Source of the DNA: Sphingorhabdus sp. EL138
GTDB lineage: Bacteria > Pseudomonadota > Alphaproteobacteria > Sphingomonadales > Sphingomonadaceae
Length of the DNA: 64,000 nt
Assembly (NCBI RefSeq): GCF_945862485.1
Contig: NZ_CAMAYF010000006.1
Coordinates: 1 to 64,000 of the forward strand
Direction of reading: 5' to 3'
Positions 545-20,740 of this stretch are shown here, piece after piece; positions within the stretch are counted from its first letter, which is position 1; each line of letters begins with the position of its first letter. The notes below the pieces were generated by a model. It did not search any database. It had not been told where the DNA came from and was given only the letters and a program-made list of their open reading frames with translations. Both the position numbers and the translations under genes were made by a program.

Positions 545-1450
545 CTAGTCACATTTCATCTTTAGATCCATACCGTAGCCTTCTGCTTCATTGTCATGTC
601 CGAATATATCAGAGACATAATACTCTTGAGCATCGATTGCCTTGCGTGCCGCCCAACCGGGCTCCCAAAGCCAGCCTGATGGATTTGCACAATAGAATGT
701 CAGAGCTCTATCGTTCGAGTGCATTCCCAGCGTTAGAGCAACGTCGCGTGCCTCCTGTCGGATTTTGTCATGTGTGATACCAAAATCGCGCAGGTCAGTA
801 TACTCAACCATAAAATGATTTATTCGCTTTGGCATCGGGCCCATCCCGAATGCAACCGAATGATCTCGGTCATTACAATGCATAAAGATAGGTTTGGCGG
901 TCATTCCATTCGGCAATGGCAAATGATATTCGACACTACCGCGAAAACCCAGCATCGAGTAAAACTTATAAGCGGCGTCGTCATCCGTCTGCCGTAAGAT
1001 ACAATGCCCGATCCCCTGATTGCCGGTCAGAAATCTGCCATGCATGGGCCGGCCAGGGTGGAAGGGATTATGGCTATCTACCCTAGGACCATAAAAAATC
1101 TCGGTCGGGTTGCCTCCAGGATCTTCCAGTTTAAGCAAACCGAGAACTTTGCGTTCTTGTGCTTCCTCTTCGCTGCCTACACGATATTCGACACCATTCT
1201 GTTCAAGCAGAACTGCGACTTCTTCTAGTTCGGGTTGACCAGCTACTCTCCAACCTAGATAGGCTAAGTCATCATCGCCATCGGTGTGAACAACAATTCG
1301 GTGATGCCACTCATCCATCCGCAGATAGTAGCGGTCTTCTTCTTCTTCGATAACCTGCATGCCGATGATGTCTCCGGCAAACTTCCTCCATGCATCACCA
1401 TCAGATACAGATAGACCCATGTAGCCAAGTTCTATTATTTTTCCAGTCAT
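545..1450 (-). CDS. nahC: 1,2-dihydroxynaphthalene dioxygenase (extradiol, NahC type)
   Basis: This enzyme cleaves the meta bond of 1,2-dihydroxynaphthalene with Fe(II) and O2, giving 2-hydroxychromene-2-carboxylate. It is a two-domain type I extradiol dioxygenase (VOC fold) of about 301 residues, the usual NahC length. Numbered from the upstream GTG codon, the metal ligands are visible as His150 (GIGHC), His213 (NHFMVEY) and Glu264 (WLWEPGW). Stretches such as [21 protein letters not shown] and [19 protein letters not shown] closely follow NahC of Pseudomonas. The ATG at 1450 is preferred over the GTG one codon upstream because GAGGAG lies 6 bases before it. It is the last gene of the leftward operon, 27 bases after the beta subunit. 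Confidence 0.9.
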
Positions 1451-1477
1451 CACATTCTCCTCGATCTAAAACATAAA

Positions 1478-1948
1478 TTACAATGGCATCGCCATAAGGG
1501 TTCTCACGATATCGTTGTCGATTACACAAACCCGTTTCCGGATTTCAAAACCACTGTCCCTATTTTCGATCAGTTCGTCGATATAACGGCCGGCCGCGTA
1601 AGGAAAAACATCACTCTGGCTCCGAGTCTCGAAGACAACAAAGTTAGATGAAGCGTGGATAACGCCATCTGTTATTTCCGTAATGATGCATGGTGCGTTG
1701 ATGTGCCTCAATGCCATTTCGGGATAGATATTTGAATGTAGTAAAGAGGCCACGCGATCGTCCATGGCATCACGGCTCTCGAAAAAGAGAAATCCGGCGG
1801 GTAATCCAGTCAGTTCGTTTTGTTTTGAAGTAATCCGATACTCACATTGTTCGGAAAAAAGTGAGGACCATTTCTCCAGTTTCTCATCAATGTAAAACCC
1901 ATATAAGGCATTGAACCGGTCAACCCTCTGTGCCATCTGATCATTCAT
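1478..1948 (-). CDS. Aromatic-ring-hydroxylating oxygenase beta subunit (second NagH/AndAd-like copy)
   Basis: This is the small subunit of a Rieske non-heme iron oxygenase, with the SnoaL-like cone fold that stabilises the alpha hexamer. It is about 156 residues long, close to the partner at 19608, and shares the pattern of an N-terminal helix (RFNALYGFYIDEK), LF.E.C.YRI, and a C-terminal RKRVCVIDNDIV. The ATG at 1948 overlaps the stop of the alpha gene (ATGA), so translational coupling is likely; longer reading upstream would run into the alpha gene. No catalytic residues are expected in this subunit. The substrate is set by the alpha subunit and is not known. Confidence 0.85.
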   Translation of the reverse strand: MNDQMAQRVDRFNALYGFYIDEKLEKWSSLFSEQCEYRITSKQNELTGLPAGFLFFESRDAMDDRVASLLHSNIYPEMALRHINAPCIITEITDGVIHASSNFVVFETRSQSDVFPYAAGRYIDELIENRDSGFEIRKRVCVIDNDIVRTLMAMPL

Positions 1949-3189
1949 GATTTCGCCCCATCTTCCATTAGATGAAGATAGCCACGCCAAAATCCACGCA
2001 CGGCATTTTCATCAAGCCCCATAGGAATGGTCGGGTTGGTAGAATTGTCCAAGTCCATCAAAATCTGTGAGTGTCCGTCTGGTCCCTTTATACCTTCTTG
2101 GCAAATTTCTATGGCCTCGCCATCTTCGAGTGAGACGTAACCGGCCGGTCCGACCATATTGATGCTACGCATTCTTTGTCGCAACATCTCGTCACTATCC
2201 TGCTCAAACCCAAAATACGTCCAAATCAGATCGAACTCGTCATTGTTTCTGACAACCATCTGACGCGTTGCCAGCGCATTACCGATCTGTTGTAAAATTA
2301 CAGATGGAAAGATGGACTGGATACTTAGAGTTATATCGTCTCCCATGTCGGGCCAAATTTCAAGTAACCGGGAGTCTTTGAGATTGACAGCTCCCGGGTC
2401 TCGGGAAGCCTCTGTTTGGTGTTTTGCCCCACTGTCATCGTCCGACGGCTTGTGCACCTGGAATGAATTGTGAAAGCCGAACTTCTCATCGATTTCGCCG
2501 ACAGATTTCTGGCTTGGTCGCCATATACCAAAAGTAGTATAAAAAAGGTGCAGTAACCCGCCATGATAGCTGTCTCGGCTGTTTTCAGCATATAGCTTCC
2601 AATTGCCTTTGATGCGTTGGCCCACAGAACCAATGACCTTGATGGGATGGATCATGATTCTCTCGATTGCAGAACACATGGCGTTTCCAAGAAAGTCTCG
2701 CAGCTCTGTCGCGTCTTCGCGGAATGTAGCAAATACCATATCCCCTATGGTGTCGACCCGCAGCGGTGTCATCCTCTGATTCTTGATATCAAATGAATCG
2801 GGCATTCCACCTTTGCCGCCTACTCCCCTGCGATAGGGGACGCTGCGCAGCGCACCAGTGGCATCATAGGCCCACTGATGATAAACGCATACAAATGCGC
2901 CAGACTCGGCTTTCCCCCGGGAATTTCGACAGACGAGCGCGCCCTTGTGAACGCAGCGGTTTACCCAGACGTGCATGGCTCCATCTTCCCCGCGGCACAG
3001 GACTACCGGCGTTTCGCCAATGTGTGTCGATTTGTATGAATTAGCTTCAGGGACCTCTGCTGCTAGCCCTACATAAGACCAAACAGGCCCGCGAAAAATG
3101 CGTTCCTGCTCCTTTTTGAATATTTCTGGATCCGAATAAACGGAATAATCAACATTTTTAGCCGTTGATGTTGTTTTCAAGTCAGGCAT
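1945..3189 (-). CDS. Rieske oxygenase alpha subunit, salicylate 5-hydroxylase/anthranilate dioxygenase (NagG/AndAc) type
   Basis: This is the catalytic large subunit of a ring-hydroxylating oxygenase, 414 residues. The Rieske cluster ligands are Cys79, His81, Cys101 and His104 (NRCVHKG... and CVYHQW). The mononuclear iron site shows Asp206, His209 and His214 (RDSYHGGLLH), with a later acidic ligand probably in LEDGE. The PYRRGVGGKGGMP stretch is typical of NagG and AndAc. It lies between a reductase (16 bases upstream) and its own beta gene (4-base overlap). Because a second NagG-like gene sits in the gentisate segment at 18342, this copy may act on a substituted salicylate, anthranilate or a similar acid. 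That is inference. Confidence 0.85.
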   Translation of the reverse strand: MPDLKTTSTAKNVDYSVYSDPEIFKKEQERIFRGPVWSYVGLAAEVPEANSYKSTHIGETPVVLCRGEDGAMHVWVNRCVHKGALVCRNSRGKAESGAFVCVYHQWAYDATGALRSVPYRRGVGGKGGMPDSFDIKNQRMTPLRVDTIGDMVFATFREDATELRDFLGNAMCSAIERIMIHPIKVIGSVGQRIKGNWKLYAENSRDSYHGGLLHLFYTTFGIWRPSQKSVGEIDEKFGFHNSFQVHKPSDDDSGAKHQTEASRDPGAVNLKDSRLLEIWPDMGDDITLSIQSIFPSVILQQIGNALATRQMVVRNNDEFDLIWTYFGFEQDSDEMLRQRMRSINMVGPAGYVSLEDGEAIEICQEGIKGPDGHSQILMDLDNSTNPTIPMGLDENAVRGFWRGYLHLMEDGAKS

Positions 3190-3204
3190 AATAATCTTTT
3201 TCCA

Positions 3205-4233
3205 CTATAGAAAACTATCAAAATAGAGTTGGTCAGCGGGCACGTTCAAATCGAGTTGCAGCATTTTATTCACCGCTGAAATCATCGCTGGCGGACCGCA
3301 GAAATAATAATCGTAATTTAGGGGGTTAATCTGTACTTTTTTGTTTTGGCGAACAACATCATGGATAAAACCCGACTCTGTTCCTTCTGGTCTATTTAAA
3401 CCGTCGGTGTCTGAGATAGCCTCTACAACAGAGACTCGTTGCGCTAAGCTAGGATAAGCAGACACGAGTTTGTTTGCACATAGGTCCTGAGGCTCGCGGC
3501 CGCCGTAAAACAACAGCATCTTCTTTTGTGATGCAGTGGCGGATATGCTGGCTTGCCGCATGATTGAAATAAGTGGAGATATTCCGGATCCCCCACCAAT
3601 TAGAATAATGTCGCGCGGCGAATTTTCTCGAAGGTAGGACATACCATAAGGACCATCGATTTCTATTTTCTGTCCCGAGACCAGATGTTCAAAAAGGAAA
3701 GACGTCGCAGCGCCACCAGGTATGCGTTTGGCGATGAACCTCCATTCACCTTGCTCATTGGGAAGATTGGACATAGAATAGGCGCGAGAACCTTTTACGG
3801 TAGGTATATCCAATAATATATATTGCCCGACTAGAAAATCCGCTGGCAAATCGCCTTTGAATGTGAGTTCGGCCATATTGTGGGTGATTTGCGTGCATGA
3901 TACATACCGAAGCGTTTGGCGGCGCGGCGAGACTATTGGTTCATATTGCCTTTCAATTTGTACTTTTATCGTACAATCTCCATCCGGCCTGCTTTGACAG
4001 GCGAGGTGGCGACCGCGACGACGCGCTCTTTCGCTGATTCCTTTGGCCTCTGGCCAGAGGTCCTTAATCTCGCCGTTTATCAGTTCAAATTGACAGGAAC
4101 CACAACCGCCCGAATTGCAGTCATATGGCAATCCAATCCCATTTCGCAGTGCGGCACGCAGAATGGTATCTCCCTTTTCGACAGGAAATTCTACATCTGT
4201 ACCTTCTACAACAATTTTTTTTGGGTTTGTCAT
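3205..4233 (-). CDS. Ferredoxin-NAD(P)H reductase component of Rieske oxygenase (2Fe-2S/FAD)
   Basis: This flavoprotein passes electrons from NAD(P)H to the Rieske ferredoxin or oxygenase. It has about 342 residues, with an N-terminal plant-type ferredoxin domain (Cys39, Cys44, Cys47, Cys79), then an FAD domain with RAYSMSN near the middle, then an NAD domain with GGGSGISPL and the C-terminal YFCGPPAM and YFDSFL. All expected motifs are present, unlike the second reductase at 15568. The ATG at 4233 is chosen because GAGGAGG lies just upstream and the preceding gene stops at 4244. It probably serves the oxygenase directly downstream, and may also serve the naphthalene-type dioxygenase. Confidence 0.88.
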   Translation of the reverse strand: MTNPKKIVVEGTDVEFPVEKGDTILRAALRNGIGLPYDCNSGGCGSCQFELINGEIKDLWPEAKGISERARRRGRHLACQSRPDGDCTIKVQIERQYEPIVSPRRQTLRYVSCTQITHNMAELTFKGDLPADFLVGQYILLDIPTVKGSRAYSMSNLPNEQGEWRFIAKRIPGGAATSFLFEHLVSGQKIEIDGPYGMSYLRENSPRDIILIGGGSGISPLISIMRQASISATASQKKMLLFYGGREPQDLCANKLVSAYPSLAQRVSVVEAISDTDGLNRPEGTESGFIHDVVRQNKKVQINPLNYDYYFCGPPAMISAVNKMLQLDLNVPADQLYFDSFL

Positions 4234-4243
4234 TTCCTCCTCT

Positions 4244-5764
4244 TTATTGCCCGAACACACCGATCGGGCCTTCTTCCAGATTGATGATGACACTCTTGGT
4301 TTGGCTATAGTTGTTCAATGCTTCACTGGCGAACTCGCGCCCAAAGCCACTGCCTTTGTAGCCGCCAATCGGCATGCCACCGATGAAGTTATAATATCGG
4401 TTTACCCAAACAGTGCCGGTTTCAAGCGCACGTGCCATCCGGTGAGCGCGAGGAAGATCGCGCGTCCAAAGCCCGCCTCCCAATCCATAGATACTTTCAT
4501 TGGCCATGCGGATAACATCCGCTTCATCCCTCCAGCCTATAACCGTTGTGACGGGGCCGAAAATCTCTTCCTGAGCAATCCGCATCTCGTTGCGGACATC
4601 TGTAAAGATGGTTGGTTTAATAAAAAGCCCATCTGGAAGGCCGTCGACCTCTCTCTTGCCCCCGCCATAGGCCACGGTGGCTCCCTCTGTTTTGCCTATA
4701 TCTATATAATTTAGAATTTTTTCATATTGCATGCGTGAGGCCTGTGGCCCCAAAACAGTGGTATGTTCCGTTGGATCACCCGAACTGGCGCGCCCAAGCA
4801 AATCTTGGAACTTCCCAAGAAACTCATCCATCACGTCTTCATGAACAAAAACCCGACTACCCGCGAGGCATACCTCACCTTTATTAAGCACAGTGGACAT
4901 CGCAGCTCCTTCTGCGGCCGCGTCTAGATCAGCGTCATTGCACACAATGTTAGCTGATTTCCCTCCTAGCTCCATCGTTTGAGGAATGACGTTGGTCGAG
5001 GCATATTGGATCAGCTTCTGTGCGGTTGGTCTGGACCCGGTAAAAGCTACCTTGCGCGTTAATGGGTGCGCCACTAGCGCTTCTCCCACATTCGGACCAT
5101 ATCCGGTCACGAGATTTAGCACACCTGCTGGTAGTAAGTCTGCCATCTCCTTGAAGAACTCTATGACGGAGAGGCATACCGCTTCGGCCGGTTTCAGAAC
5201 TACCGTGTTGCCTGCAGCGAGTGCTGGTGCAATCTTAGACGCCATCATTATTAGCGGGACATTCCAGGGTATAATCTGTACACACACGCCGAGTGGCTCA
5301 CGTAGGACTATTCCAAGACCGTTAGGAGCCTCAATCGTTTGCCCATGCAGAAACCATGGAGCACCTGAGAACATCTCGAATTGTTCGACCGCCATTGGAA
5401 TATCGAAATTCATAGCCTCCATGAATGGCTTACCATTGTCCAACGTGTCCATCATTGCGTAATCTTCAGCACGAGCTTTCAGGCGGCGACCCATTTCATA
5501 GATTATCTCCTGACGCTGAGATCGAGACGTTCGTGACCATGCAGGAAAGGCTTTCGCAGCAGCTTCGACAGCGCGCTTTGCGTCAGCGGCATTGGCGGAC
5601 TGAATCTTAGCAAGGCAATCCCCAGTTGAGGGGTTGATCATGTCAATGGTTTCACCGCTGCTACTTTGCTCCCAAGCACCATCGATGAAAAGTCCATATT
5701 CTTTCTGAAATAGCTTTTCAGCAAGTTTAAGGTGCTTTTGGCGGACATCTTCTACGTTTGACAT
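4244..5764 (-). CDS. Aldehyde dehydrogenase, probable salicylaldehyde dehydrogenase
   Basis: This is an NAD(P)-dependent aldehyde dehydrogenase of 506 residues. The catalytic set is complete: Asn168 (IIPWNVP), Glu265 (MELGGKS) and Cys299 (NKGEVCLAG), with the Rossmann signal FTGS near 241. A strong GAGGAG lies 8 bases or so before the ATG. The overall type resembles class 1/2 or betaine-aldehyde-like dehydrogenases rather than a close copy of NahF. Its position in an operon with NahC, and the lack of any other aldehyde dehydrogenase in the island, make oxidation of salicylaldehyde to salicylate the likely role. The family is sure; the substrate is inferred from context. Confidence 0.85.
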   Translation of the reverse strand: MSNVEDVRQKHLKLAEKLFQKEYGLFIDGAWEQSSSGETIDMINPSTGDCLAKIQSANAADAKRAVEAAAKAFPAWSRTSRSQRQEIIYEMGRRLKARAEDYAMMDTLDNGKPFMEAMNFDIPMAVEQFEMFSGAPWFLHGQTIEAPNGLGIVLREPLGVCVQIIPWNVPLIMMASKIAPALAAGNTVVLKPAEAVCLSVIEFFKEMADLLPAGVLNLVTGYGPNVGEALVAHPLTRKVAFTGSRPTAQKLIQYASTNVIPQTMELGGKSANIVCNDADLDAAAEGAAMSTVLNKGEVCLAGSRVFVHEDVMDEFLGKFQDLLGRASSGDPTEHTTVLGPQASRMQYEKILNYIDIGKTEGATVAYGGGKREVDGLPDGLFIKPTIFTDVRNEMRIAQEEIFGPVTTVIGWRDEADVIRMANESIYGLGGGLWTRDLPRAHRMARALETGTVWVNRYYNFIGGMPIGGYKGSGFGREFASEALNNYSQTKSVIINLEEGPIGVFGQ

Positions 5765-5800
5765 TTTGCACTCTCCTCTAGTGTAATTTCACGGCAATAA

Positions 5801-6106
5801 TCAGATTTGATCAATGTACACAAAGCCATCTTTTATCGTGGCTTCGTAGGTTTTTAGCGGTATCTCACAGGGGAATGCCTCTGGCTCACCAGTTTTGACA
5901 TCGAAAGCCCCCGAATGAAGCGGGCACTCGATAAGGCCGTCTTCAAAAAAACCGTCTGTGAGCCGTGCGACATTGTGTGTGCATATATTGCTCGTTACAT
6001 AAATTTTATCGTCGAGATTAAATACAGCAAGTGGAGGCATTCCCTCTTGGTCGATTGGTAGCATGTCACCACATTGTATATCTGTAATCGCACACAATCT
6101 GATCAT
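5801..6106 (-). CDS. Rieske-type [2Fe-2S] ferredoxin of ring-hydroxylating dioxygenase
   Basis: This small electron carrier has 101 residues, typical of NahAb and NagAb ferredoxins. Rieske ligands are Cys42 and His44 (CTH) and Cys61 and His64 (CPLH). It is the only free Rieske ferredoxin in the island, so it probably feeds all three Rieske oxygenases: the naphthalene-type one at 11819 and both NagG-like ones. It is the first gene of the leftward operon, divergent from the LysR gene, with 192 bases between them. The Shine-Dalgarno is weak (a GGAAAAA-like run). Confidence 0.9.
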   Translation of the reverse strand: MIRLCAITDIQCGDMLPIDQEGMPPLAVFNLDDKIYVTSNICTHNVARLTDGFFEDGLIECPLHSGAFDVKTGEPEAFPCEIPLKTYEATIKDGFVYIDQI

Positions 6107-6136
6107 TCCATTTTTCCACTTTTTTCATATCATCGG

Positions 6137-6158
6137 GTTGTAAATTTTTGCTTACAAC
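6137..6158. promoter_or_regulatory. Inverted repeat in the divergent promoter region, candidate LysR operator
   Basis: GTTGTAA and TTACAAC form a perfect 7-base inverted repeat with an 8-base spacer, 31 bases before the start of the ferredoxin gene. LysR-type regulators usually bind interrupted palindromes in the divergent region, so this is a good candidate site. The half-site TTGTAAAT recurs at 7552-7559 upstream of the receptor-led operon. The assignment is inference. Confidence 0.45.
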
Positions 6159-6250
6159 ATTTGCACAGTTTAATTCGGTGGTCATCCGTCTCAGCAGACA
6201 ATCTAACTAGATGAGCTTAGGCAAAAGAATCTTACAATCAATCGCACCTT

Positions 6251-6267
6251 GTGATAGATATCATCAC
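6251..6267. promoter_or_regulatory. Second candidate LysR-type operator (GTGAT-N7-ATCAC)
   Basis: A palindrome with 5-base arms spans 6251-6267, about 32 bases before the LysR start codon. It contains a T-N11-A arrangement, the usual LysR signature. Its closeness to the regulator start suggests autorepression. The sequence pattern is seen; the binding is inferred. Confidence 0.4.
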
Positions 6268-6298
6268 TGAGAATGATAATAGGCGATGAAGGCAGGTT

Positions 6299-7198: not shown

Positions 7199-7706
7199 GC
7201 AGAGCAGTTGAAACAGATGGTTCTCCAGTACCGACCTAGCAGTTGATCGGAAAAGGCATCTCTGCAGATACATTGAAAACACTGTGCTTTGGCAATCAAT
7301 AAAATCAGGATAATTTTCGACAAAAGCCAATTTTGTGGAATATTCATCGACCAAATTTACTCAGTTCGTCACATTACCAAGATAAAATGACATGGTAACT
7401 CGTGCCTGTAAATATGTAGGGACTCGTGAGACATCTTCTGCAGATTCCTGAAGCAGGAAGGAGATGTATCGATGACCAAGAAGGACCAGCGCGACGTACA
7501 GCGCAAAGTGCATTATTACCAGTGGTGATATTCAATATGCAATTTGGCGTATTGTAAATAGTTATCTGCAGGTCACTATCTGCTTCATAGTATGCGGGGC
7601 CGAAGGTGTGTCCGAAGGTGCCGGTTCGACCTCTGACGAAGCGCGTACGATATGGTTCAAACGTGGTCTTTAGTATCGCAATTATAATGAAGTGGGAGGA
7701 AGTTTT
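7199..7706. other. Intergenic region upstream of the receptor-led operon, with transposase debris
   Basis: About 500 bases without an intact gene separate the LysR gene from the TonB-dependent receptor. The middle part holds the apparent start of a transposase (7472-7528). The half-site TTGTAAAT, matching the inverted repeat at 6137, is at 7552-7559. A CCGAAGGTG sequence occurs twice near 7602-7622. The promoter of the rightward operon should lie between about 7530 and 7690, but I cannot name a convincing -35/-10 pair. Confidence 0.5.
7472..7528 (+). pseudogene. 5' remnant of an integrase-type transposase gene
   Basis: An ATG preceded by AGGAAGGAG opens a short frame MTKKDQRDVQRK, then VHYYQW and a stop. 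The first twelve residues look like the usual start of IS481-like integrase-core transposases that continue with a helix-turn-helix. Similarity ends after the twelfth residue, so only the 5' end of the element remains. If correct, the element or a deletion around it reshaped the promoter region of the operon. The match is from memory of family starts and is short, hence the modest confidence. Confidence 0.4.
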
Positions 7707-10127: not shown

Positions 10128-10215
10128 TCTCAAAGAGGAGACTTGTCGTTAGCGGCAAATCTAGACGTCGAAGGTGTATCTAACTGTCACATGTTTCATA
10201 GAAAGCCCCAAACAA

Positions 10216-11202
10216 ATGACCCGCCCCAAACTAACAGTCGCTGATATCCATGGTGCATGGGCGATCGTGCCTACGCCCTCAAAACCTAACGCAAGCGATT
10301 GGAAGGCTTCAGATACGGTTGATCTCGACGAGACAAAGCGGGTTGTCGAACAATTGATTGAGGCTGGCGTCAATGGAATTCTGTCGCTCGGTTCGCTTGG
10401 CGAAGCGGCAACGCTGACCTGGGATGAAAAGCGGGATTTCATGGAGGCTCTCGTAAAAGCTGCGCGCGGCCGCGTTCCCGTGTTCGGAGGGACTAGTTCC
10501 CTTTCGACACGAGAAACGATTTGGCAAACACGTGAAGCGGAAAAAATCGGTGTGGATGGCGTTATGATCGGCCCCCCAATGTGGTGTGCTCCAGATGTTC
10601 CAACAGCAGTCCAGTTTTACCGTGACGTCGCTGAGGCTTGCCCTGCGATGGCCATCTGCGTTTACGCCAATCCCGAAGCCTTCAAATTCGATTTTCCTCG
10701 CCCCTTCTGGGCCCATGTTTCTGAAATCCCTCAGGTTGTTACCGCGAAATATCTCGGAATTGGTGCACTGGTGCCTGATCTGAAGCTATCACAGAAGAAA
10801 ATTCGTTTTTTGCCTATCGACATTGATTATTATGCTGCTGCTCGCATTGATCCGGAGTTTTGCACTGCATTCTGGACCAGTGGTGCAGTTTGCGGACCGA
10901 CGCCTGTCATCAAATTACGTGATGAGGTTGCCAAGGCTAAAGAAACCGGTGTTTGGGGCGAAGCGCAAAAGATCACTGGTGACATTGGCTATACCTACCA
11001 GACCCTTTTCCCCAACGGTTCGTTCAAGGACTTTTCTTCTTATAATATAGGACTCGAAAAGGCGCGTATGGATGCTGCTGGCTGGATGAAGGCGGGGCCT
11101 TGTCGTCCGCCATACACGATCATCCCCGAGGCATATCTCGAAGGGGCGCGAGAGTCAGGCCGTCGCTGGAGTGAACTACACCGGCGTCTTGAGGATGTAT
11201 GA
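10216..11202 (+). CDS. nahE: trans-o-hydroxybenzylidenepyruvate hydratase-aldolase (NahE type)
   Basis: This enzyme splits trans-o-hydroxybenzylidenepyruvate into salicylaldehyde and pyruvate by a class I (Schiff base) aldolase mechanism. It has 328 residues from the ATG at 10216, like NahE. The expected lysine is Lys178 ([10 protein letters not shown]), with Tyr150 ([10 protein letters not shown]) also conserved. Long stretches such as [18 protein letters not shown] and [15 protein letters not shown] follow NahE closely. The ATG at 10216 fits the family N terminus; an upstream GTG at 10174 would add 14 unusual residues. Its stop overlaps the start of nahD, so the two are probably translationally coupled. 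Confidence 0.92.
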
Positions 11203-11822
11203 AAGTGTCCAACAACCATATCATTGACTTCTATTTTGATTTCATGAGTCCATTTTCCTACTTGGCGCATCTACGACTTCCCAATTTGGCTCGTCAGTTT
11301 GAATGCAAGCTCGATTACCACCCTATAGATCTTCCCGCTGCAAAGCTGGCGGCGGGCAACACTGGGCCACCCAACGTGAAGATACCAATTAAGTTGCAAT
11401 ATCTAACGTCAGACCTTGACCGTTGGGCAGCTCGGTATGGCGCTCCGATTAAGTTCCCTCCGTCGCTGGACTCCAGAATGGTAAACTGCGGAACATTCTT
11501 TGCAGATAAAAGGTCTCAAACTGAGGACTATGTGCAGAAGACGTGGAGGCGGATCTGGGGCAATGGCGAGGATATGTCCGATCTGGCAGTATTGTCGCAG
11601 ATCGCTGGCGACATGGGCTGGAGACCTGATGAGTTTTTGGATTTTGTGTGTTCCGATAACGTGCTGGAACAATATGACCAATCTAACGCCAATGCGCAAC
11701 AGGTGGGCGTGTTTGGCGCTCCGACAATGATTCTTGATGGTCAGATGTGGTGGGGAAATGACCGTTTAGACTTTTTGCGGGATTTTCTCAAAAACAAACA
11801 AAACCGAGGATTTGAAAAATGA
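11199..11822 (+). CDS. nahD: 2-hydroxychromene-2-carboxylate isomerase (NahD type)
   Basis: This glutathione-dependent isomerase converts 2-hydroxychromene-2-carboxylate to trans-o-hydroxybenzylidenepyruvate. It has 207 residues with the DsbA/kappa-GST fold. The start [14 protein letters not shown] carries Ser17, the glutathione-contacting serine of the family, and the end has [21 protein letters not shown], which is typical of NahD. Both ends overlap neighbours by 4 bases (ATGA with nahE upstream and with the dioxygenase alpha gene downstream). The substrate flow NahC, NahD, NahE is thus encoded in the island, with NahC in the opposite operon. Confidence 0.92.
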
Positions 11823-13150
11823 GAGATTTGATCGACGTCCAGCGTGGCAAACAAAGTGCACGTATGTTTCACGACCCTGAGATTTACGAACGAGAAATGG
11901 AAGCTATTTTTGGTCGTTGTTGGCTGTTTTTAACGCATGAGTCAGCTATCCCGAATTTTGGAGATTTTGTAACTACTCGTATGGGGCAAGACGAAGTGAT
12001 CGTTGTGCGCCAAAAGGATGGCTCCATAAAAGCATTTCTCAATGTCTGCAGACACCGCGGCGCACGCATTTGTCCGGTTGAAGCCGGTAACAAGCGCTCG
12101 TTTGTTTGCAATTACCACGGTTGGTCTTATGCGGTTGACGGTTCTTTATCCGCAGTGCCGTTCGAAAAAGAGCTTTATCAAGGCAAACTAGATCGAGAGA
12201 CGCACGGCCTGAAAGAAGTTGCTCAAGTTTCAATTTATCATGGTTTCGTCTTCGGTAATTTCGATGCAGGTGCAATTAGCTTGGAGGATTATCTAGGTGA
12301 CGCTCGATGGTATCTTGATATCTGGATGGAGGCGAGTGGAGGCGTTGAACTAGTCGGTCCACCTAGTCGGTCTGTTGTCCATTGTAACTGGAAAGCGCCA
12401 TGCGAGAATTTCGTCGGTGATGCCTATCATGTTGGCTGGACGCACGCATCGTCTTTGGCAGTCAGTGGATCAATGCTGGCACCGATGTCCGGAAATGCGG
12501 CCCTTCCGCCAGCAGGTGCAGGGATTCAAGTCGCCTCTCGCTATGGGCACGGACACGGGATTTTGTATGACGTTCATCCCGGTGGCCATGATGCTAAACT
12601 CGGCGAGGAAATGTTGGCTTGGCAGGCTACAAAACGCGTTGCGATGGAAGAGAAATACGGCGCTATTCGCACACGTTATTATGGTTCACATATAAACGGC
12701 GCAATTTTCCCTAATGTTTCATATCTTTGGGGCACGAATCTTTTTAAAACCTGGCAGCCGGTTGCACCGAATGAAACAGAATGCTGGACTTGGGCGATTG
12801 TCGAAAAAGATATGCCGGACGAATTGAAACGTAAGATCGTAAATGGAATGCACCGAACATTCGGTGTGGCTGGATACTGGGAAGCTGATGATAATGACAA
12901 TATGGAATCAGCATCGCTTTTGACCACAGGATTTCAAACACGCAAACTGCAATTGAATGCACAAATGGGAATAGGAAAAGATATTGTCGATTCTGAACTG
13001 CCAGGTGTCTTAGGTCAGGCCGCAATCGGTGAAACCGCGTATCGCGGTTATTATCGGTTTTATGACGAAGTTATGAGGTCCGCCTCTTGGGGGGATATGG
13101 ATCCGAGCGATGATAGCTGGAAAGAACAGCTTGTTAGTGCTGATGTCTAA
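11819..13150 (+). CDS. nahAc: Naphthalene-type aromatic dioxygenase alpha subunit (NahAc-like)
   Basis: This is the catalytic subunit of a ring-hydroxylating dioxygenase, 443 residues. It is predicted to make the cis-1,2-dihydrodiol of naphthalene or a related bicyclic ring. Rieske ligands are Cys77, His79, Cys97 and His100. The mononuclear iron site is His204 and His209 with bridging Asp201 (FVGDAYHVGWTHA), and the third ligand lies in the DDNDNMES stretch, as in naphthalene dioxygenase. VPFEKELY and GGVELVGPP are also naphthalene-dioxygenase-like. The start overlaps nahD (ATGA). The electron-transfer partners are elsewhere in the island: ferredoxin at 5801, reductases at 3205 and 15568. Confidence 0.9.
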   Translation: MRDLIDVQRGKQSARMFHDPEIYEREMEAIFGRCWLFLTHESAIPNFGDFVTTRMGQDEVIVVRQKDGSIKAFLNVCRHRGARICPVEAGNKRSFVCNYHGWSYAVDGSLSAVPFEKELYQGKLDRETHGLKEVAQVSIYHGFVFGNFDAGAISLEDYLGDARWYLDIWMEASGGVELVGPPSRSVVHCNWKAPCENFVGDAYHVGWTHASSLAVSGSMLAPMSGNAALPPAGAGIQVASRYGHGHGILYDVHPGGHDAKLGEEMLAWQATKRVAMEEKYGAIRTRYYGSHINGAIFPNVSYLWGTNLFKTWQPVAPNETECWTWAIVEKDMPDELKRKIVNGMHRTFGVAGYWEADDNDNMESASLLTTGFQTRKLQLNAQMGIGKDIVDSELPGVLGQAAIGETAYRGYYRFYDEVMRSASWGDMDPSDDSWKEQLVSADV

Positions 13151-13194: not shown

Positions 13195-13770
13195 ATGAAT
13201 AGCGTATCAAGGTCTGCAAATGTGATGGGAGCTGACATCTGGGATGGGGATCCCGAGATTATCTGGGATACGGATATTACTGGTGAGGTAAATGCGTTCT
13301 TTCTTAGAGAAGCGCGCTTGCTGGACATGCGGCGGTTGCGTGAATGGCTTGCCCAAATGATCGACAAAAATATACGCTATGTAATCGTTAGTCGGCAACT
13401 TCGTTACAAGAATGATAAGCGGTATGACCTGCCCGATGAAGTTTTCATTTATGATGACGACTATGAATGTCTCAATGCTAGAGTGGAGCAATTTCATTCT
13501 GAGCTGAATTGGAGGGTCAACCCGGAAGAAAATTATCAGCACATGGTTGCAAACACAGAGATCGCTCAAAAACCGGGAAGCGTAAATCTTTTCGTACGAT
13601 CCAACTGGTTTGTCCAACGTGCCCGACGTCAATACGAGATCGACCGTTTTGTTTATTGTCGGCACGACGAGTTAGCGAGAGATAGCGAAGGCAAGTTCAA
13701 GGTTGTTGCACGCCATATCGATTATGACGAACGATGTGTTAGAGGCCGTAATATGACGATGTTCTTGTAA
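13195..13770 (+). CDS. nahAd: Naphthalene-type aromatic dioxygenase beta subunit (NahAd-like)
   Basis: This is the small subunit pairing with the alpha subunit 44 bases upstream. It has 191 residues, the usual length for NahAd and BphA2. Typical marks are the N-terminal FLREARLLDMRRLREWL, the central MVANTEI region, NLFVRSNWFVQRARRQ, and the C-terminal ARHIDYDERCVRGRNMTMFL. A good AAGGTGA lies 6 bases before the ATG. It is longer and unlike the two NagH-type beta subunits at 1478 and 19608, which matches the different class of its alpha subunit. Confidence 0.9.
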   Translation: MNSVSRSANVMGADIWDGDPEIIWDTDITGEVNAFFLREARLLDMRRLREWLAQMIDKNIRYVIVSRQLRYKNDKRYDLPDEVFIYDDDYECLNARVEQFHSELNWRVNPEENYQHMVANTEIAQKPGSVNLFVRSNWFVQRARRQYEIDRFVYCRHDELARDSEGKFKVVARHIDYDERCVRGRNMTMFL

Positions 13771-13800
13771 TATAATCAATAAATTGGATCGGAGAAGATA

Positions 13801-14622: not shown

Positions 14623-14652
14623 ATTATTAGAAGGTCCAATAAGGAAGCGCAC

Positions 14653-15519: not shown

Positions 15520-15567
15520 GGTTGATATCGCCATATACATATTAAATGGTGTCAGTAGTAGCCTGCG

Positions 15568-16548
15568 ATGATCGTGCGCTTGGAGCCCTTTGGAACGCTT
15601 ATTGATTGTGCGCTAGATAGCAACCTTCTTGACACCTTGATTAAACATGATGTCCCGATTTCTTATAGCTGTCGTAATGGCAATTGCAATATGTGCGCCT
15701 TAGAACAAGTGGCGTTCGATGATGGCCGTTCTTGCTTGACTGGCTCTGCAATCTCTATGCCAGTTTCGGCAAAGCGCCTTGCATGTCAGATACAAGTCCA
15801 GGAAAATATCGCGGTTCATTTGCCACAAGAGCGACCGGTACAGACACCGGCTCACCTTAAGTTGCGAGCTAAGGTGGAGTGCGTTGGAGCCATCCACCCT
15901 TCGATTATGAGGCTAGTGTGTACCCTTGATCGTCCGGTGAATTTCCTGCCAGGGCAACATTTCTCGGTTAGTTTTTCAAAGAACGTCAAGCGTAAATATT
16001 CTGCCGCCAACTTGTCGGGAGAAGCGAGTCTTGTATTCTACATAGAACGCCATGAAGAGGGTGTCGCCACCGGTCTCTTGGAGGATGAATTGGCGGCTGG
16101 AGATACGCTTGTAATCGAAGGGCCATATGGAAACAGTTATTTAATTCCCGACGATTCTACGCCGGTCCTGCTAGCCAGTGTGGGAGTAGGTTTTGGGGCA
16201 TTAGTTTCTGCGATGGAAAGTCTTAAAACTACAAATCCGACCCGGAGGGTTATCGCGATCGTAGATGTACCGGAAGGATTAGAAGAAATGATCCAAACAT
16301 TACTACTGCCGGCCCGAAATAAGCTCATGAATGCAGATGTGAAATTTATATCGCTGTATAAATCTATTGGTAGAACTTCAAAACCCCAAAATGTTTCGGA
16401 GGCAATTCGCGAGATGCCTCAGAATTTCTGTGGATGGTCAGCCAATGTATTTGGTAGATTTGTCGCAATGATGCCAATCCGCAATAGATTGATTGATCAG
16501 GGCGTAGACCCGCAACTTATCTATCTCGAACCTTACACTCCATCCTGA
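15568..16548 (+). CDS. NahAa-like ferredoxin reductase with degenerate NAD-binding domain
   Basis: The protein has 326 residues. The N-terminal plant-type ferredoxin domain is intact (Cys35, Cys40, Cys43, Cys73), and the FAD domain keeps RKYSAANLS, similar to the NahAa/NagAa type. The NAD domain is unusual. Where GGGTGLAP is expected there is SVGVGFGALVS, and where the C-terminal Y.CGPP is expected there is NVFGRFVAMMP. The final LIYLEPYTPS still resembles the family end. It may bind NADH poorly, or may have changed its donor; the complete reductase at 3205 could replace it. It lies in the operon between the FAH gene and gentisate dioxygenase. Confidence 0.8.
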   Translation: MIVRLEPFGTLIDCALDSNLLDTLIKHDVPISYSCRNGNCNMCALEQVAFDDGRSCLTGSAISMPVSAKRLACQIQVQENIAVHLPQERPVQTPAHLKLRAKVECVGAIHPSIMRLVCTLDRPVNFLPGQHFSVSFSKNVKRKYSAANLSGEASLVFYIERHEEGVATGLLEDELAAGDTLVIEGPYGNSYLIPDDSTPVLLASVGVGFGALVSAMESLKTTNPTRRVIAIVDVPEGLEEMIQTLLLPARNKLMNADVKFISLYKSIGRTSKPQNVSEAIREMPQNFCGWSANVFGRFVAMMPIRNRLIDQGVDPQLIYLEPYTPS

Positions 16549-16569
16549 CATAACATTGAGAGCATCATT

Positions 16570-17613
16570 ATGTCTATTAGTATAACGCCGACTGGCGACA
16601 ACATACGCAAAGAATTCTATCAAAGAATTGATCCAGAAAATCTTACACCTCTTTGGGAAGTACTGGCCTCACTGGTTCCAGAATCCCCGACGACTTCAGC
16701 CAAGGCACACCTATGGGAATTTTCAACTATTCGCGATTATCTCATGGAAGCCGGCGAGCTTATTACTGCCGAGGAGGCAGAGCGCCGCGTCCTCATTCTT
16801 GAAAATCCGGGACTGCGTGGCCAGTCACAGATCACACAAAGTCTTTATGCTGGCCTACAGCTAATATTGCCTGGCGAAATCGCGCCTGCACACCGTCATA
16901 CGCAATCGGCCTTGAGGCTCGTGGTTTCTGGAGAAGGTGCCTATACGGCCGTCGACGGAGAAAGAACGATCATGCGGCGTGGCGATTTTATAATCACGCC
17001 TGCTTGGACCTATCATGATCATGGCAATGATGGTGATGAGCCAGTTATATGGCTTGATGGTTTGGATATCCCGATTGTTGAAATGCTCGCTGCAGGATTT
17101 CGAGAAGGAGCCCCAGAAAAGGCACAGATTCCAACGCGCCTAATTGGAGATTCGCTGGCGCGTTTCGGGACGAATATGCTGCCGGTAGATTTCGAGGTTG
17201 AGCCAAGCGATCCAACGCGTGTGTTTGTCTACCCATATGAAGAAGCGCGTCGCTCGCTTGAAAAAATAGCTTGTGGCGAATCTGATGTGCATCACGGATT
17301 TAAGTTTCGCTACATCAATCCGGCGACTGGTAGATCACCTATGCCAACCATCGGTGCATTTCTGCAAATGCTGCCCAGTGGATTTGTAACACGTCCCTAC
17401 CGGTCGACGGATTCCACCATATTCCTATGCCTGGAAGGGAGTGGCCGCGCGACAATAGAAGGAAAGGATTATGAATTTGGCGAAAATGACGTTTTTGTGA
17501 TTCCTTCATGGAATACTTTCAAGCTTCACGCGGAGACCGAGACGGTTCTCTTTAGCTACTCTGACCGACCCGTCCAAAAAGCACTCGGATTGTGGCGTGA
17601 ACAACGTCTCTAA
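16570..17613 (+). CDS. Gentisate 1,2-dioxygenase
   Basis: This is a bicupin Fe(II) dioxygenase that opens gentisate (2,5-dihydroxybenzoate) between C1 and C2 to maleylpyruvate. It has 347 residues, the usual length. The iron ligands in the first cupin are His108, His110 (PAHRHTQSALR) and His149 (TYHDHGN). The second cupin lies at about residues 240-340 (FLCLEGSGRATIEG). Its presence with salicylate 5-hydroxylase, maleylpyruvate isomerase and fumarylpyruvate hydrolase genes shows the gentisate route rather than the catechol route. Salicylate 1,2-dioxygenase is a close relative and cannot be fully excluded. Confidence 0.9.
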   Translation: MSISITPTGDNIRKEFYQRIDPENLTPLWEVLASLVPESPTTSAKAHLWEFSTIRDYLMEAGELITAEEAERRVLILENPGLRGQSQITQSLYAGLQLILPGEIAPAHRHTQSALRLVVSGEGAYTAVDGERTIMRRGDFIITPAWTYHDHGNDGDEPVIWLDGLDIPIVEMLAAGFREGAPEKAQIPTRLIGDSLARFGTNMLPVDFEVEPSDPTRVFVYPYEEARRSLEKIACGESDVHHGFKFRYINPATGRSPMPTIGAFLQMLPSGFVTRPYRSTDSTIFLCLEGSGRATIEGKDYEFGENDVFVIPSWNTFKLHAETETVLFSYSDRPVQKALGLWREQRL

Positions 17614-17645
17614 TGCTCTAGAATATAAAAAAGGACGTTGACGAT

Positions 17646-18326: not shown

Positions 18327-18341
18327 GAAGGATATGGTGAG

Positions 18342-19604: not shown

Positions 19605-19607
19605 GTT

Positions 19608-20078
19608 ATGAGCCTATTTGATATCAATGAAATTTGCAGGCTCTATTCGAAATATGAGGATTGCATCGATTCGGAAGAGTTTGATAATTGGGTCCATCTG
19701 TTCACCGATGATGCCAACTATAAAGTCATCCCGCGCGAAAATTATGAAAAGGAACTTCCACTAGCTACGCTAGACCTTTCCAGCAAAGGCATGATGCTTG
19801 ACCGAATTCACGGGGTTAGGGAGACAATTTATCACGATCCTTATTATCAACGGCATGTGACAAGTCTTCCCGTTATAAGGCAAGAAGACGACAGCAGCGT
19901 TTTTTGTGAAGCAAATTATGCAGTTTTTCGAACTAAATTGAGCGAACCATCAACTGTATTCAATGTGGGACGATATTTTGATCATATCGTTAAAGAGGGA
20001 GGTGCCTTAAAATTTAAAAGCCGAACCTGTGTCTACGATAGTGAGATGATTCCAAATGCGATCATCTATCCGATCTGA
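19608..20078 (+). CDS. nagH: Salicylate 5-hydroxylase small subunit (NagH-like)
   Basis: This is the beta subunit of the NagG-like oxygenase, 156 residues with the SnoaL-like fold. Marks are the N-terminal EICRLYSKYEDCIDSEEFDNW, LF.DDA.YKV.PRENYE, NVGRYFDHIV, and KSRTCVYDSEMIPN near the end. Its ATG follows the nagG stop by 3 bases, and its GGAGG lies inside the end of nagG, so the pair is probably translationally coupled. It is the same class as the beta subunit at 1478, but the two are clearly diverged. Confidence 0.85.
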   Translation: MSLFDINEICRLYSKYEDCIDSEEFDNWVHLFTDDANYKVIPRENYEKELPLATLDLSSKGMMLDRIHGVRETIYHDPYYQRHVTSLPVIRQEDDSSVFCEANYAVFRTKLSEPSTVFNVGRYFDHIVKEGGALKFKSRTCVYDSEMIPNAIIYPI

Positions 20079-20095
20079 TTGAGGAGACAGTGACA

Positions 20096-20740
20096 GTGAA
20101 GAAGCTTTATGAATTTTTTAGGAGTTCGGCATCCTATCGATTGCGCATTGCACTCAATTTGAAAAATATTAGCTATGAACAGGTTTCAATTGATTTCGCC
20201 ACTAAGGAGCAACTTTCGGACGATTTCACAAATATCAACCCATCAAAACTAGTCCCAGTGCTAGAAGAAGACGATGGATGGCGGCTTAGTCAATCGCTCG
20301 CAATCATTGAGTATCTGGACGAAACACACTTGAATTTTCCTTTGCTGCCGCGAGACGACCCTCGAGCCCGGGGCTATGTTCGTCAATGTGCCTTGATTAT
20401 CGCTTGTGATATTCATCCACTCAACAACCTTCGGATATTGAAATACTTGACTGGTGATCTAGATGTAGATGAGGATGCCAAAACTGCATGGATTAGTCAT
20501 TGGATTTCAGAAGGTTTCACGGCGCTCGAAACGCTAATAAACGAACAGCAACATGCTTTTCAATTTTGTTTTGGTGATACACCTACCTTAGCAGATTGTT
20601 GCTTGATTCCACAGGTTTTCAATGCGCGTCGGTTCAACGTTAATCTCTCCGCTTTTCCGCAGATTAATCGAATAAATAGCGCCTGCCTAGAACTTGACGA
20701 ATTCAAAAGGGCGCACCCAGACATGGTGAGCCAGACGTAG
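20096..20740 (+). CDS. nagL: Maleylpyruvate isomerase, zeta-class glutathione transferase (NagL-like)
   Basis: This glutathione-dependent enzyme isomerises maleylpyruvate to fumarylpyruvate. It has 214 residues with an N-terminal thioredoxin-like domain and an all-helical C-terminal domain. The zeta-class signature SSASYRLRIALNL is at about residues 9-21, followed by NPSKLVPVLEEDDG and the glutathione-contact motif QSLAIIEYLDE. The GTG at 20096 is preferred over the in-frame GTG at 20090, because GAGGAGA at 20081-20087 is then 8 bases away. It is the last gene of the rightward operon. Maleylacetoacetate isomerase is the close alternative; the neighbours favour maleylpyruvate. Confidence 0.88.
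   Translation: MKKLYEFFRSSASYRLRIALNLKNISYEQVSIDFATKEQLSDDFTNINPSKLVPVLEEDDGWRLSQSLAIIEYLDETHLNFPLLPRDDPRARGYVRQCALIIACDIHPLNNLRILKYLTGDLDVDEDAKTAWISHWISEGFTALETLINEQQHAFQFCFGDTPTLADCCLIPQVFNARRFNVNLSAFPQINRINSACLELDEFKRAHPDMVSQT

What the first reader, a model, noticed from the sequence alone, without database searches (positions are those of the whole stretch)
545..20740. Complete naphthalene-to-fumarate/pyruvate pathway (nah upper, nag gentisate lower) in a sphingomonad island
Every enzyme from naphthalene dioxygenase through dihydrodiol dehydrogenase, NahC, NahD, NahE, aldehyde dehydrogenase, salicylate 5-hydroxylase, gentisate dioxygenase, maleylpyruvate isomerase and fumarylpyruvate hydrolase has a candidate gene. 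From family knowledge, sphingomonads usually degrade aromatics through scattered bph/xyl/ahd genes and catechol, while the gentisate (nag) route is known from betaproteobacteria such as Ralstonia U2. A compact nag-type route here would be an unusual combination.
Basis: partly seen in the sequence, partly recalled or inferred. Interest (0 to 1): 0.82.

Follow-up and report, generated by a model that had tools for sequence, protein, structure and literature searches.

The report
Naphthalene-to-gentisate gene island in sphingomonad
A small-genome sphingomonad carries, on one acquired DNA island, what looks like a full set of genes for breaking naphthalene down through salicylate and gentisate; it is a real and uncommon pathway variant whose relatives occur in a few other bacteria, rather than a new kind of system.

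Summary
Confirmed: 20 intact genes at 545-20740 cover every step from naphthalene to pyruvate plus fumarate. 11819 falls in the naphthalene dioxygenase clade, 18342/19608 match salicylate 5-hydroxylase NagGH, and 16570 passes the gentisate dioxygenase cut-off. Two searches found no catechol-cleaving enzyme in the genome.

Corrections. (1) It is not a transplanted nag operon of the betaproteobacterial type: order and several genes differ, and the nearest whole clusters lie in Sphingobium algorifonticola, Sphingopyxis sp. GW247-27LB and, in part, Nevskiales. (2) A sphingomonad with a nag operon is already on record (Sphingobium sp. JS3065 plasmid). (3) The finding does not mention a second oxygenase (1945/1478) of a clade with characterised catechol-forming salicylate 1-hydroxylases, a maleylpyruvate-hydrolase-like gene (14653), and a NagAa-like protein (15568) whose NAD-binding motifs are lost in the three sphingomonad clusters.

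The island (GC ~48%, host ~57%) lies between pieces of one IS3-family type (ISSsp2-like) near tRNA-Ser; none of 44 other genus genomes searched gave a dioxygenase match at E <= 1e-60. Verdict: real, rare, new variant of a known pathway; activity untested.

The parts
3..243 (+). 3' end (about 240 bp) of an IS3-family element, ISSsp2-like; includes the C-terminus of the transposase; runs off the contig start
   Evidence: 81% to ISSsp2 on pCAR3 (L112:2774-3012) and 82% to an IS on pTK1; ORF tail read
545..1453 (-). NahC-type extradiol dioxygenase (1,2-dihydroxynaphthalene or 2,3-dihydroxybiphenyl)
   Evidence: 64% to NahC of NAH7, 67% to pNL1 BphC, 79% to L009; PDB 2wl3 460 bits and 2ei2 457 bits; TIGR03213 368.1 bits, cut-off 366.45
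1478..1990 (-). beta subunit of the second oxygenase (listed ORF start overlaps the alpha gene)
   Evidence: Ring_hydroxyl_B; 42% to L009, 34% to pNL1
1945..3189 (-). alpha subunit of the second Rieske oxygenase, AhdA1c/A1d clade (characterised relatives: salicylate 1-hydroxylase)
   Evidence: 53% to pNL1 156111-157391; grouped with it 100/99
3205..4293 (-). ferredoxin reductase with Fer2, FAD and NAD domains
   Evidence: three Pfam domains; GGGSG and CGPP motifs in the alignment
4244..5764 (-). aldehyde dehydrogenase, presumed salicylaldehyde dehydrogenase (NahF role)
   Evidence: Aldedh; 62% to a pNL1 enzyme, 31% to the nah/nag-operon enzymes, 76% to L009 and L011
5801..6106 (-). Rieske ferredoxin (NahAb/NagAb role)
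   Evidence: Pfam Rieske; 42-46% to nah, nag and pNL1 ferredoxins; 62-68% upstream of L009 and L016
6299..7198 (+). LysR-type regulator, NahR/NagR-like
   Evidence: 40-41% to NagR/NahR; 49-50% in L133/L134
7692..10127 (+). TonB-dependent outer-membrane receptor (uptake, presumed)
   Evidence: Pfam; 69% in L009/L016, 58% in pNL1
10174..11202 (+). NahE trans-o-hydroxybenzylidenepyruvate hydratase-aldolase
   Evidence: PDB 9frt 487 bits, 6dao 483 bits; 63% to NAH7; Lys at NAH7 position 183 and Tyr at 155 kept (roles recalled)
11199..11822 (+). NahD 2-hydroxychromene-2-carboxylate isomerase
   Evidence: PDB 2imd 168 bits; 43% to NAH7
11819..13150 (+). naphthalene dioxygenase alpha subunit (NahAc role)
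   Evidence: PDB 1eg9 527 bits; tree; 17 of 18 inspected positions as in NdoB
13195..13770 (+). naphthalene dioxygenase beta subunit
   Evidence: Ring_hydroxyl_B; 31-36% to nah/nag, 55% to L009
13801..14622 (+). NahB-type cis-dihydrodiol dehydrogenase
   Evidence: NF004849 375 bits, cut-off 330; 43-45% to nah/nag, 75% to L009
14653..15519 (+). FAA-fold hydrolase, maleylpyruvate hydrolase candidate
   Evidence: PDB 6jvv/6jvw maleylpyruvate hydrolase 219 bits, next best 140 bits; relatives at >=50% in 7 of 76 loci
15568..16548 (+). NagAa-like protein with the [2Fe-2S] cysteines but without the usual NAD-binding motifs
   Evidence: alignments and domain identities; only Fer2 and FAD domains reported by Pfam
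16570..17613 (+). gentisate 1,2-dioxygenase
   Evidence: TIGR02272 514 bits, cut-off 442; PDB 2d40 417 bits; 63% to gtdA of Paraburkholderia plasmid NZ_CP051517
17646..18326 (+). fumarylpyruvate hydrolase (NagK role)
   Evidence: 48% to NagK of JS3065/BN5; PDB 6j5y 255 bits and 4maq 'putative fumarylpyruvate hydrolase' 216 bits
18342..19604 (+). salicylate 5-hydroxylase large subunit (NagG ortholog)
   Evidence: PDB 7c8z salicylate 5-hydroxylase 637 bits, next best 292 bits; 63-65% to NagG; tree
19608..20078 (+). salicylate 5-hydroxylase small subunit (NagH ortholog)
   Evidence: 52-54% to NagH
20090..20740 (+). glutathione-dependent maleylpyruvate isomerase (NagL role)
   Evidence: TIGR01262 280 bits, cut-off 171; PDB 2v6k/2jl4 maleylpyruvate isomerase 197 bits
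20880..21216 (+). 5' end (about 337 bp) of the same IS3-family type, same orientation, cut off inside orfA
   Evidence: 83% to ISSsp2, L112:1498-1831
21391..21480 (-). tRNA-Ser(GGA), first host-type feature beyond the island
   Evidence: tRNA and downstream DNA shared with genus relatives

Best explanation
An acquired catabolic island for naphthalene. A ferredoxin (5801) and reductase (3205) feed naphthalene dioxygenase (11819/13195); NahB, NahC, NahD, NahE and an aldehyde dehydrogenase give salicylate; salicylate 5-hydroxylase (18342/19608) gives gentisate; gentisate dioxygenase (16570) gives maleylpyruvate. This goes to fumarate plus pyruvate through 20090 and 17646, with a possible bypass through the maleylpyruvate-hydrolase-like 14653. 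A NahR-like LysR protein probably switches it on, and the TonB receptor probably serves uptake. Gene identity and order are shown; substrates, electron-transfer partners, induction and growth are inferred.
For: Each step has an intact gene with family evidence. 11819 groups with NDOs and matches NdoB at 17 of 18 inspected sites. 18342 matches the solved salicylate 5-hydroxylase with 637 bits against 292 for the next entry and is split from the salicylate 1-hydroxylase clade. Whole-cluster synteny in L009 and L016; 16 of the 20 genes on one contig in three Nevskiales genomes. No catechol 2,3-dioxygenase other than weak similarity of the window's own NahC (27%, E 1e-8) and no intradiol dioxygenase. 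GC, IS ends, and no NahAc match at E <= 1e-60 in 44 other genus genomes support acquisition.
Against: No activity data. NahC could equally be a 2,3-dihydroxybiphenyl dioxygenase by sequence, and NDO-type enzymes accept other arenes. The 1945/1478 oxygenase could send salicylate to catechol. The aldehyde dehydrogenase is only 31% to the nah/nag enzymes. NCBIfam has no model that 18342 passes: its best is anthranilate dioxygenase AndAc at 374 bits, cut-off 750. Genome is 96.6% complete, and other types of catechol-cleaving enzyme were not searched for.
Confidence: 0.86

Rival explanations
1. The cluster's main substrate is another arene (methylnaphthalene, phenanthrene, naphthalenesulfonate, a nitroarene or a biphenyl-like compound), and the second oxygenase 1945/1478 handles a substituted salicylate or anthranilate formed from it.
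For: The second oxygenase is kept in all three sphingomonad clusters at 70-71%; NDO-type alpha subunits act on many arenes (family knowledge); JS3065 carries a nag-type operon with a changed alpha subunit (Val at 352); AhdA1c and AhdA1d of strain PNB also act on anthranilate (passages).
Against: 11819 keeps the NdoB residues at 17 of 18 inspected sites including Phe352; NahD and NahE belong to the two-ring upper pathway (family knowledge); salicylate 5-hydroxylase plus gentisate dioxygenase fit plain salicylate.
Confidence: 0.3
2. Salicylate is split between two routes: to gentisate by 18342/19608 and to catechol by the AhdA1d-like 1945/1478.
For: AhdA1c and AhdA1d of Sphingobium sp. PNB convert salicylate to catechol (PMC4048848, passages); 1945 groups with pNL1's homolog.
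Against: No catechol-cleaving enzyme found by the two searches made; a flavoprotein NahG search was also empty but had no positive control. 1945 is only 53% to the pNL1 protein.
Confidence: 0.15
3. It is simply a betaproteobacterial nag operon moved into a sphingomonad, as on the JS3065 plasmid.
For: NagG 63-65% and NagH 52-54% identical; LysR 40-41% to NagR. The best plasmid matches for both 18342 (67%) and 16570 (63%) lie on one Paraburkholderia aromaticivorans plasmid, NZ_CP051517, about 28 kb apart.
Against: Different gene order and strands; ALDH 31%, GDO 34-36%, NahAc 49-52% to the nah/nag operons compared, against 71-75% for NahAc in L009, L016, L011 and L017; extra TonB receptor, FAA hydrolase and second oxygenase.
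Confidence: 0.02
4. The island is an assembly or binning error and does not belong to this genome.
For: Left edge is a contig end; GC ~48% against ~57%.
Against: Contig C6 runs without a break from the island through an IS remnant into tRNA-Ser, hemC, tsaD and valS; the DNA from the tRNA on matches genus relatives. A chimeric join at the IS piece cannot be excluded without reads.
Confidence: 0.05

Closest known systems
Cluster in Sphingobium algorifonticola TLA-22 (L009) and Sphingopyxis sp. GW247-27LB (L016)
   Same: All 20 genes present (18 in the loci, LysR and ferredoxin just upstream); 42-79% identity to the window except 15568 (26-27%); same order within the two blocks
   Different: Here the LysR-to-NahC block is inverted relative to the rest; GC ~48% against 58%; ISSsp2-like ends flank it here (their flanks were not searched for IS)
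Nevskiales cluster (Hydrocarboniphaga effusa AP103, Solimonas aquatica, Sinimarinibacterium flocculans)
   Same: E, D, Ac, Ad, B, FAA hydrolase, reductase, ALDH, ferredoxin, LysR, red2, I, K, G, H, L on one contig
   Different: No NahC-type enzyme matched in the stretches read; in L027 a class III extradiol dioxygenase sits between E and D. No second oxygenase or TonB receptor matched there; red2 keeps its NAD motifs
nag operon of the Ralstonia sp. U2 type, as in Paraburkholderia BN5 pBN2 and Sphingobium JS3065 pNIN2
   Same: Same pathway logic, NagGH orthologs
   Different: Order, most sequences, GDO and ALDH lineages, extra genes; the U2 operon itself was not compared
PAH cluster of Sagittula sp. 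MA-2 and other Roseobacteraceae (PMC11705938, passages)
   Same: NahD, NahE, NahF, gentisate dioxygenase, HbzF, NagK, NagL in one cluster of alphaproteobacteria
   Different: Rhodococcus BphA-like dioxygenase; the term salicylate 5-hydroxylase does not occur in its text
Sphingomonad bph/xyl/ahd set on pNL1
   Same: ALDH (62%), TonB receptor (58%), BphC (67%) and AhdA1d-like oxygenase (53%) are related
   Different: The pNL1 stretch read holds catechol 2,3-dioxygenase and meta-cleavage genes

Membership tests
Naphthalene 1,2-dioxygenase (nah/nag type, alpha subunit) | Closest solved relative is NDO, and groups with NDOs rather than with BphA1f | tested here: met
   527 bits to 1eg9; clade of 12 rows with NAH7 NdoB, 99/99
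Naphthalene 1,2-dioxygenase (nah/nag type, alpha subunit) | Rieske and iron ligands and pocket residues as in NdoB | tested here: met
   17 of 18 inspected columns identical; roles recalled
Naphthalene 1,2-dioxygenase (nah/nag type, alpha subunit) | Oxidises naphthalene to the cis-dihydrodiol | not testable with these tools
   needs enzyme assay
Salicylate 5-hydroxylase (NagGH) | Alpha subunit in the NagG clade and separate from salicylate 1-hydroxylases | tested here: met
   637 vs 292 bits; 12-row NagG clade 98/94; nearest to NagG within it at 89/96, not a starred fork
Salicylate 5-hydroxylase (NagGH) | Adjacent small subunit NagH and available ferredoxin/reductase | tested here: met
   19608 52-54% to NagH; 5801 and 3205 present
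Salicylate 5-hydroxylase (NagGH) | Makes gentisate from salicylate | not testable with these tools
   needs assay
U2-type nag operon | Order R-Aa-G-H-Ab-Ac-Ad-B-F-C-E-D-J-I-K-L (after the operons read; U2 itself and some gene names recalled) | tested here: not met
   Island is two divergent blocks in another order
Salicylate 1-hydroxylase (AhdA1c/d type), for 1945/1478 | Groups with AhdA1d | tested here: met
   100/99 with pNL1 156111-157391, 53%; equating that gene with AhdA1d is by gene order and recall
Salicylate 1-hydroxylase (AhdA1c/d type), for 1945/1478 | Makes catechol from salicylate | not testable with these tools
   needs assay
Maleylpyruvate hydrolase, for 14653 | Best solved relative is maleylpyruvate hydrolase | tested here: met
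   219 vs 140 bits; activity not tested
NahAa/NagAa reductase, for 15568 | NAD(P)-binding motifs in the C-terminal domain | tested here: not met
   GGGTGLAP and CGAP replaced; 22 of 130 identical to NagAa in this domain
Composite transposon | Two complete copies of one IS flanking the region | tested here: inconclusive
   Only the 3' end of one copy and the 5' end of another are present; left copy runs off the contig

The most novel reading that the evidence does not exclude
A third lineage of naphthalene-gentisate superclusters exists, exchanged between sphingomonads and Nevskiales and assembled independently of the beta nag operon; in its sphingomonad branch the NagAa-type reductase beside gentisate dioxygenase has shed its NAD-binding function and become a NahT/XylT-like ferredoxin that keeps the dioxygenase iron reduced, while one other reductase (3205) serves three oxygenases, and maleylpyruvate has two exits (isomerase plus hydrolase, and direct hydrolysis).
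Probability: 0.2. Interest if true: 0.55.

Novelty: new variant of a known kind. Interest (0 to 1): 0.42.

Why it matters
Sphingomonads are well-known degraders of polycyclic aromatics and are usually described as working through scattered bph/xyl/ahd genes and catechol (background knowledge). A complete, compact gentisate-type cluster on an acquired island in a 2.18 Mb assembly gives a marker set for a route that surveys keyed to pNL1-type genes could miss, a gene set shared between two classes of Proteobacteria, and a natural test of how a reductase gene decays or is reused when several oxygenases share electron carriers.

Tried and rejected
Rejected: transplanted beta nag operon (order and identities); catechol as the main lower route; site-specific integration into tRNA-Ser as cause (no integrase among the 20 island genes, and the tRNA lies about 175 bp beyond a truncated IS).

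Led nowhere: the empty-site comparison. The gene next to tRNA-Ser in relative L103 matches host contig C51, which is 3,628 bases long and ends inside that gene, so the left junction cannot be read. The neighbour also differs between relatives L102, L103 and L106. Operator search: a recalled NahR-like pattern matched in NAH7 and JS3065 but not in the window's LysR-ferredoxin gap nor in L133, L134, L011 or L027; the gap before the TonB gene was only read by eye and has no match among plasmids.

Own errors, corrected: three of six family NagG rows (L094, L097, L098) came from the wrong strand; the tree was rebuilt, which alone is used for clade claims. In one search the L027 reductase row was out of frame; redone. 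In one search the window trio lay outside a group of NagG plus family rows, it is beside NagG at 89/96, so only the wider NagG clade is relied on. One search also warns of long branches (XylX, A1c, A1d and others).

Full report
WHAT IS THERE. Twenty intact ORFs fill 545-20740. Minus strand, from 6106 down: Rieske ferredoxin, aldehyde dehydrogenase, reductase, a Rieske oxygenase alpha/beta pair, extradiol dioxygenase. Plus strand, from 6299: LysR regulator, TonB receptor, NahE, NahD, naphthalene dioxygenase alpha and beta, dihydrodiol dehydrogenase, FAA-fold hydrolase, reductase-like protein, gentisate dioxygenase, FAA-fold hydrolase, salicylate 5-hydroxylase large and small subunits, GST-type isomerase. 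Family assignments come from Pfam and NCBIfam and PDB sequence searches.

IS EACH STEP THE RIGHT ENZYME? The alpha subunit 11819 scores 527 bits with NDO 1eg9, is identical to NdoB of NAH7 at 17 of 18 inspected positions and lies in a 12-row clade with nah/nag enzymes, apart from the sphingomonad A1f clade. NahE scores 487 and 483 bits with solved hydratase-aldolases; NahD 168 bits with 2imd. NahC is a type I extradiol enzyme about equally close to 1,2-dihydroxynaphthalene dioxygenase and to a PDB entry labelled catechol 2,3-dioxygenase (457 and 460 bits), and just passes the biphenyl-diol model: its substrate is not resolved by sequence. 18342 scores 637 bits with solved salicylate 5-hydroxylase against 292 for the next entry; NCBIfam offers only AndAc, far below its cut-off (374 of 750). 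16570 passes TIGR02272 (514, cut-off 442). 20090 passes the maleylacetoacetate isomerase model and its best PDB hits are maleylpyruvate isomerases. 17646 is 48% to NagK. The aldehyde dehydrogenase is 62% to a pNL1 enzyme but 31% to the nah/nag ones, so its NahF role rests on context and on 75-76% relatives in the related clusters.

WHAT THE FINDING DID NOT MENTION. (a) 1945/1478 is a second oxygenase. In the tree it groups with pNL1 156111-157391 (100/99), which I equate with AhdA1d by gene order and recall. AhdA1c and AhdA1d of Sphingobium sp. PNB turn salicylate into catechol, and anthranilate into 2-aminophenol (PMC4048848, passages). Yet a search with pNL1's catechol 2,3-dioxygenase found only a weak match to the window's own NahC, and the intradiol family was not found (that search rang in 4 of 14 controls). 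A NahG search was empty too, without a positive control. So a catechol branch would be a dead end as far as can be seen. (b) 14653 is closest to maleylpyruvate hydrolase 6jvv (219 bits, next 140; the name HbzF for it is recalled), and relatives at >=50% identity lie in 7 of 76 relative loci. (c) 15568 looks like NagAa but lacks the NAD motifs; so do the copies in L009 and L016, while three Nevskiales copies keep GxGTGLAP and GSP. Identity between the window and L009 copies is 34/90 in the ferredoxin domain, 25/104 in the FAD domain and 28/126 in the NAD domain, below every other gene pair (42-79%). The four cluster cysteines are kept in both. Against a special role for the ferredoxin part: compared with NagAa, the window's ferredoxin domain (26/92) is no better kept than its FAD domain (30/104); only the NAD domain is clearly worse (22/130). 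It sits directly before gentisate dioxygenase; NAH7 has a small [2Fe-2S] protein gene before its catechol 2,3-dioxygenase, and Sagittula MA-2 lists a ferredoxin next to its gentisate dioxygenase. A reactivating role is my inference.

RELATIVES. One scan of the genome contigs collection with 11819 gave 167 related stretches, of which the best 80 were kept as 76 loci. I printed gene order for 13 of them and counted over all 76. At >=65% identity 11 of 76 carry this alpha subunit; only L009 and L016 also carry NagG (>=55%), gentisate dioxygenase (>=50%), NahC (>=70%) and the second oxygenase (>=60%) within the fetched stretch. For five Nevskiales-type loci (L011-L014, L027) the gentisate dioxygenase lies just past the locus edge; in three of them that I fetched further (L011, L012, L027), contig lengths agree and K, G, H and L follow; for the other two I saw red2, I, K and part of G. 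Three of these species are placed in Nevskiales. In L027 a class III extradiol dioxygenase lies between E and D. In Panacagrimonas (L010) the gentisate genes are on another contig, and in the genome of L018 no gentisate dioxygenase was found at E <= 1e-30. Sphingobium sp. JS3065 holds a beta-type nag operon on conjugative plasmid pNIN2, and Blastomonas sp. RAC04 a NagG-like pair near gentisate genes on a plasmid. Among plasmids the best match of both 18342 (67%) and 16570 (63%) is one Paraburkholderia aromaticivorans plasmid, so these two genes have betaproteobacterial kin too. In the host's family 7 of 249 genomes, host included, have a NagG match at E <= 1e-120; in its genus 1 of 45, the host itself, has the NDO alpha at E <= 1e-60 (34 of the 45 are at least 90% complete and at most 5% contaminated).

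THE ISLAND. GC is 45-51% per 2 kb up to 22 kb and 53-61% beyond; third-position GC is 0.40-0.53 in all 20 genes against 0.61-0.67 in hemC, tsaD and valS. The seven relative loci with FAA hydrolase and ALDH (L009, L016, L011-L014, L027) have GC 0.58-0.65; two MAG loci with more distant alpha subunits (L019 59%, L020 57%) have GC 0.40 and 0.42. The source of this low-GC copy is not identified. Bases 3-243 match the 3' end and 20880-21216 the 5' end of one IS3-family type, ISSsp2 of pCAR3 (81% and 83%), in the same orientation: what a region between two direct copies would leave, the right copy being truncated. Then comes tRNA-Ser, with downstream DNA matching genus relatives. In a near-identity search of plasmids, 12 records were hit, and the best place of each is one of these IS pieces; 4 further places were not listed. 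The order differs from L009/L016 by inversion of the whole LysR-to-NahC block (545-7198). The host is a sphingomonad by valine tRNA ligase: full-length 70% to Sphingomonadaceae bacterium 3R27E2-A and Croceicoccus pelagius and 64% to Erythrobacter sanguineus, against 51-54% for Hyphomonas, Henriciella and Hoeflea; Sphingobium, Sphingopyxis and Novosphingobium match in pieces, the main ones at 66-80%.

LITERATURE. Papers were seen only as search listings or passages. Starkeya sp. N1B, another alphaproteobacterium, has nagG and gentisate genes on separate contigs (PMC6559018, passages). Sphingobium sp. C100 is reported to have one gentisate dioxygenase gene (PMC3907727, passages). PMC13193623 (passages) gives nagGH and nagI for Achromobacter KK8. 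The Sphingomonas RW5 gentisate dioxygenase paper and a U2 paper are not held; RW5 I saw in reference lists and in values quoted by PMC4585797 (passages). Searches: naphthalene + gentisate + salicylate 5-hydroxylase + Sphingomonadaceae gave 0 papers; Hydrocarboniphaga + gentisate + naphthalene 0; Sphingorhabdus + naphthalene + gentisate 1, by title on a hexachlorocyclohexane degrader; sphingomonad + gentisate + naphthalene 28, 25 listed, passages read of three (PMC3907727, PMC11705938, PMC13193623); broader searches gave 24 and 61 papers, 20 listed each. The name Sphingobium algorifonticola occurs in one paper, on taxonomy (listing). I saw no paper describing this cluster, in this open-licence library and in the papers opened only.

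VERDICT. The pathway call is right, and the island is real and rare. It is a new variant of the naphthalene-salicylate-gentisate pathway: no new chemistry is required. The most interesting loose ends are the altered reductase, the second oxygenase and the sharing between two classes.

Noticed in passing
window 15568-16548; L009:13793-14818; L016:13793-14818: NagAa-like protein directly before gentisate dioxygenase lacks the NAD-binding motifs in the three sphingomonad clusters but not in three Nevskiales ones
   Followed up: partly
window 545-7198 and 7199-7691: The LysR-to-NahC block is inverted relative to L009/L016; the 493-base gap before the TonB gene is one edge of that inversion and has no plasmid match
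   Followed up: partly
L027:8528-9355: Nevskiales cluster has a class III extradiol dioxygenase where the sphingomonad clusters use a type I NahC
   Followed up: partly
window 1-21300: Island GC (~48%) is lower than the host and than the seven relative loci with GC 0.58-0.65; only two distant MAG loci (L019, L020) of the 13 printed are lower, at 0.40-0.42; source unknown
   Followed up: no
G000 contigs C4, C5, C17, C20, C21: Six further Rieske oxygenase alpha-like genes outside the window matched the NDO query in a 2.18 Mb assembly
   Followed up: no
window 32199-33479: Cytochrome P450 with 337 bits to the solanimycin-biosynthesis P450 model, far below its cut-off of 850
   Followed up: no
L085 (Sphingobium sp. 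JS3065 pNIN2): Beta-type nag operon beside IS1071 and IS21 elements on a conjugative sphingomonad plasmid; no dihydrodiol dehydrogenase is listed between NagAd and the aldehyde dehydrogenase in an incomplete gene table, though a 44% match to the window's NahB lies in that gap
   Followed up: no
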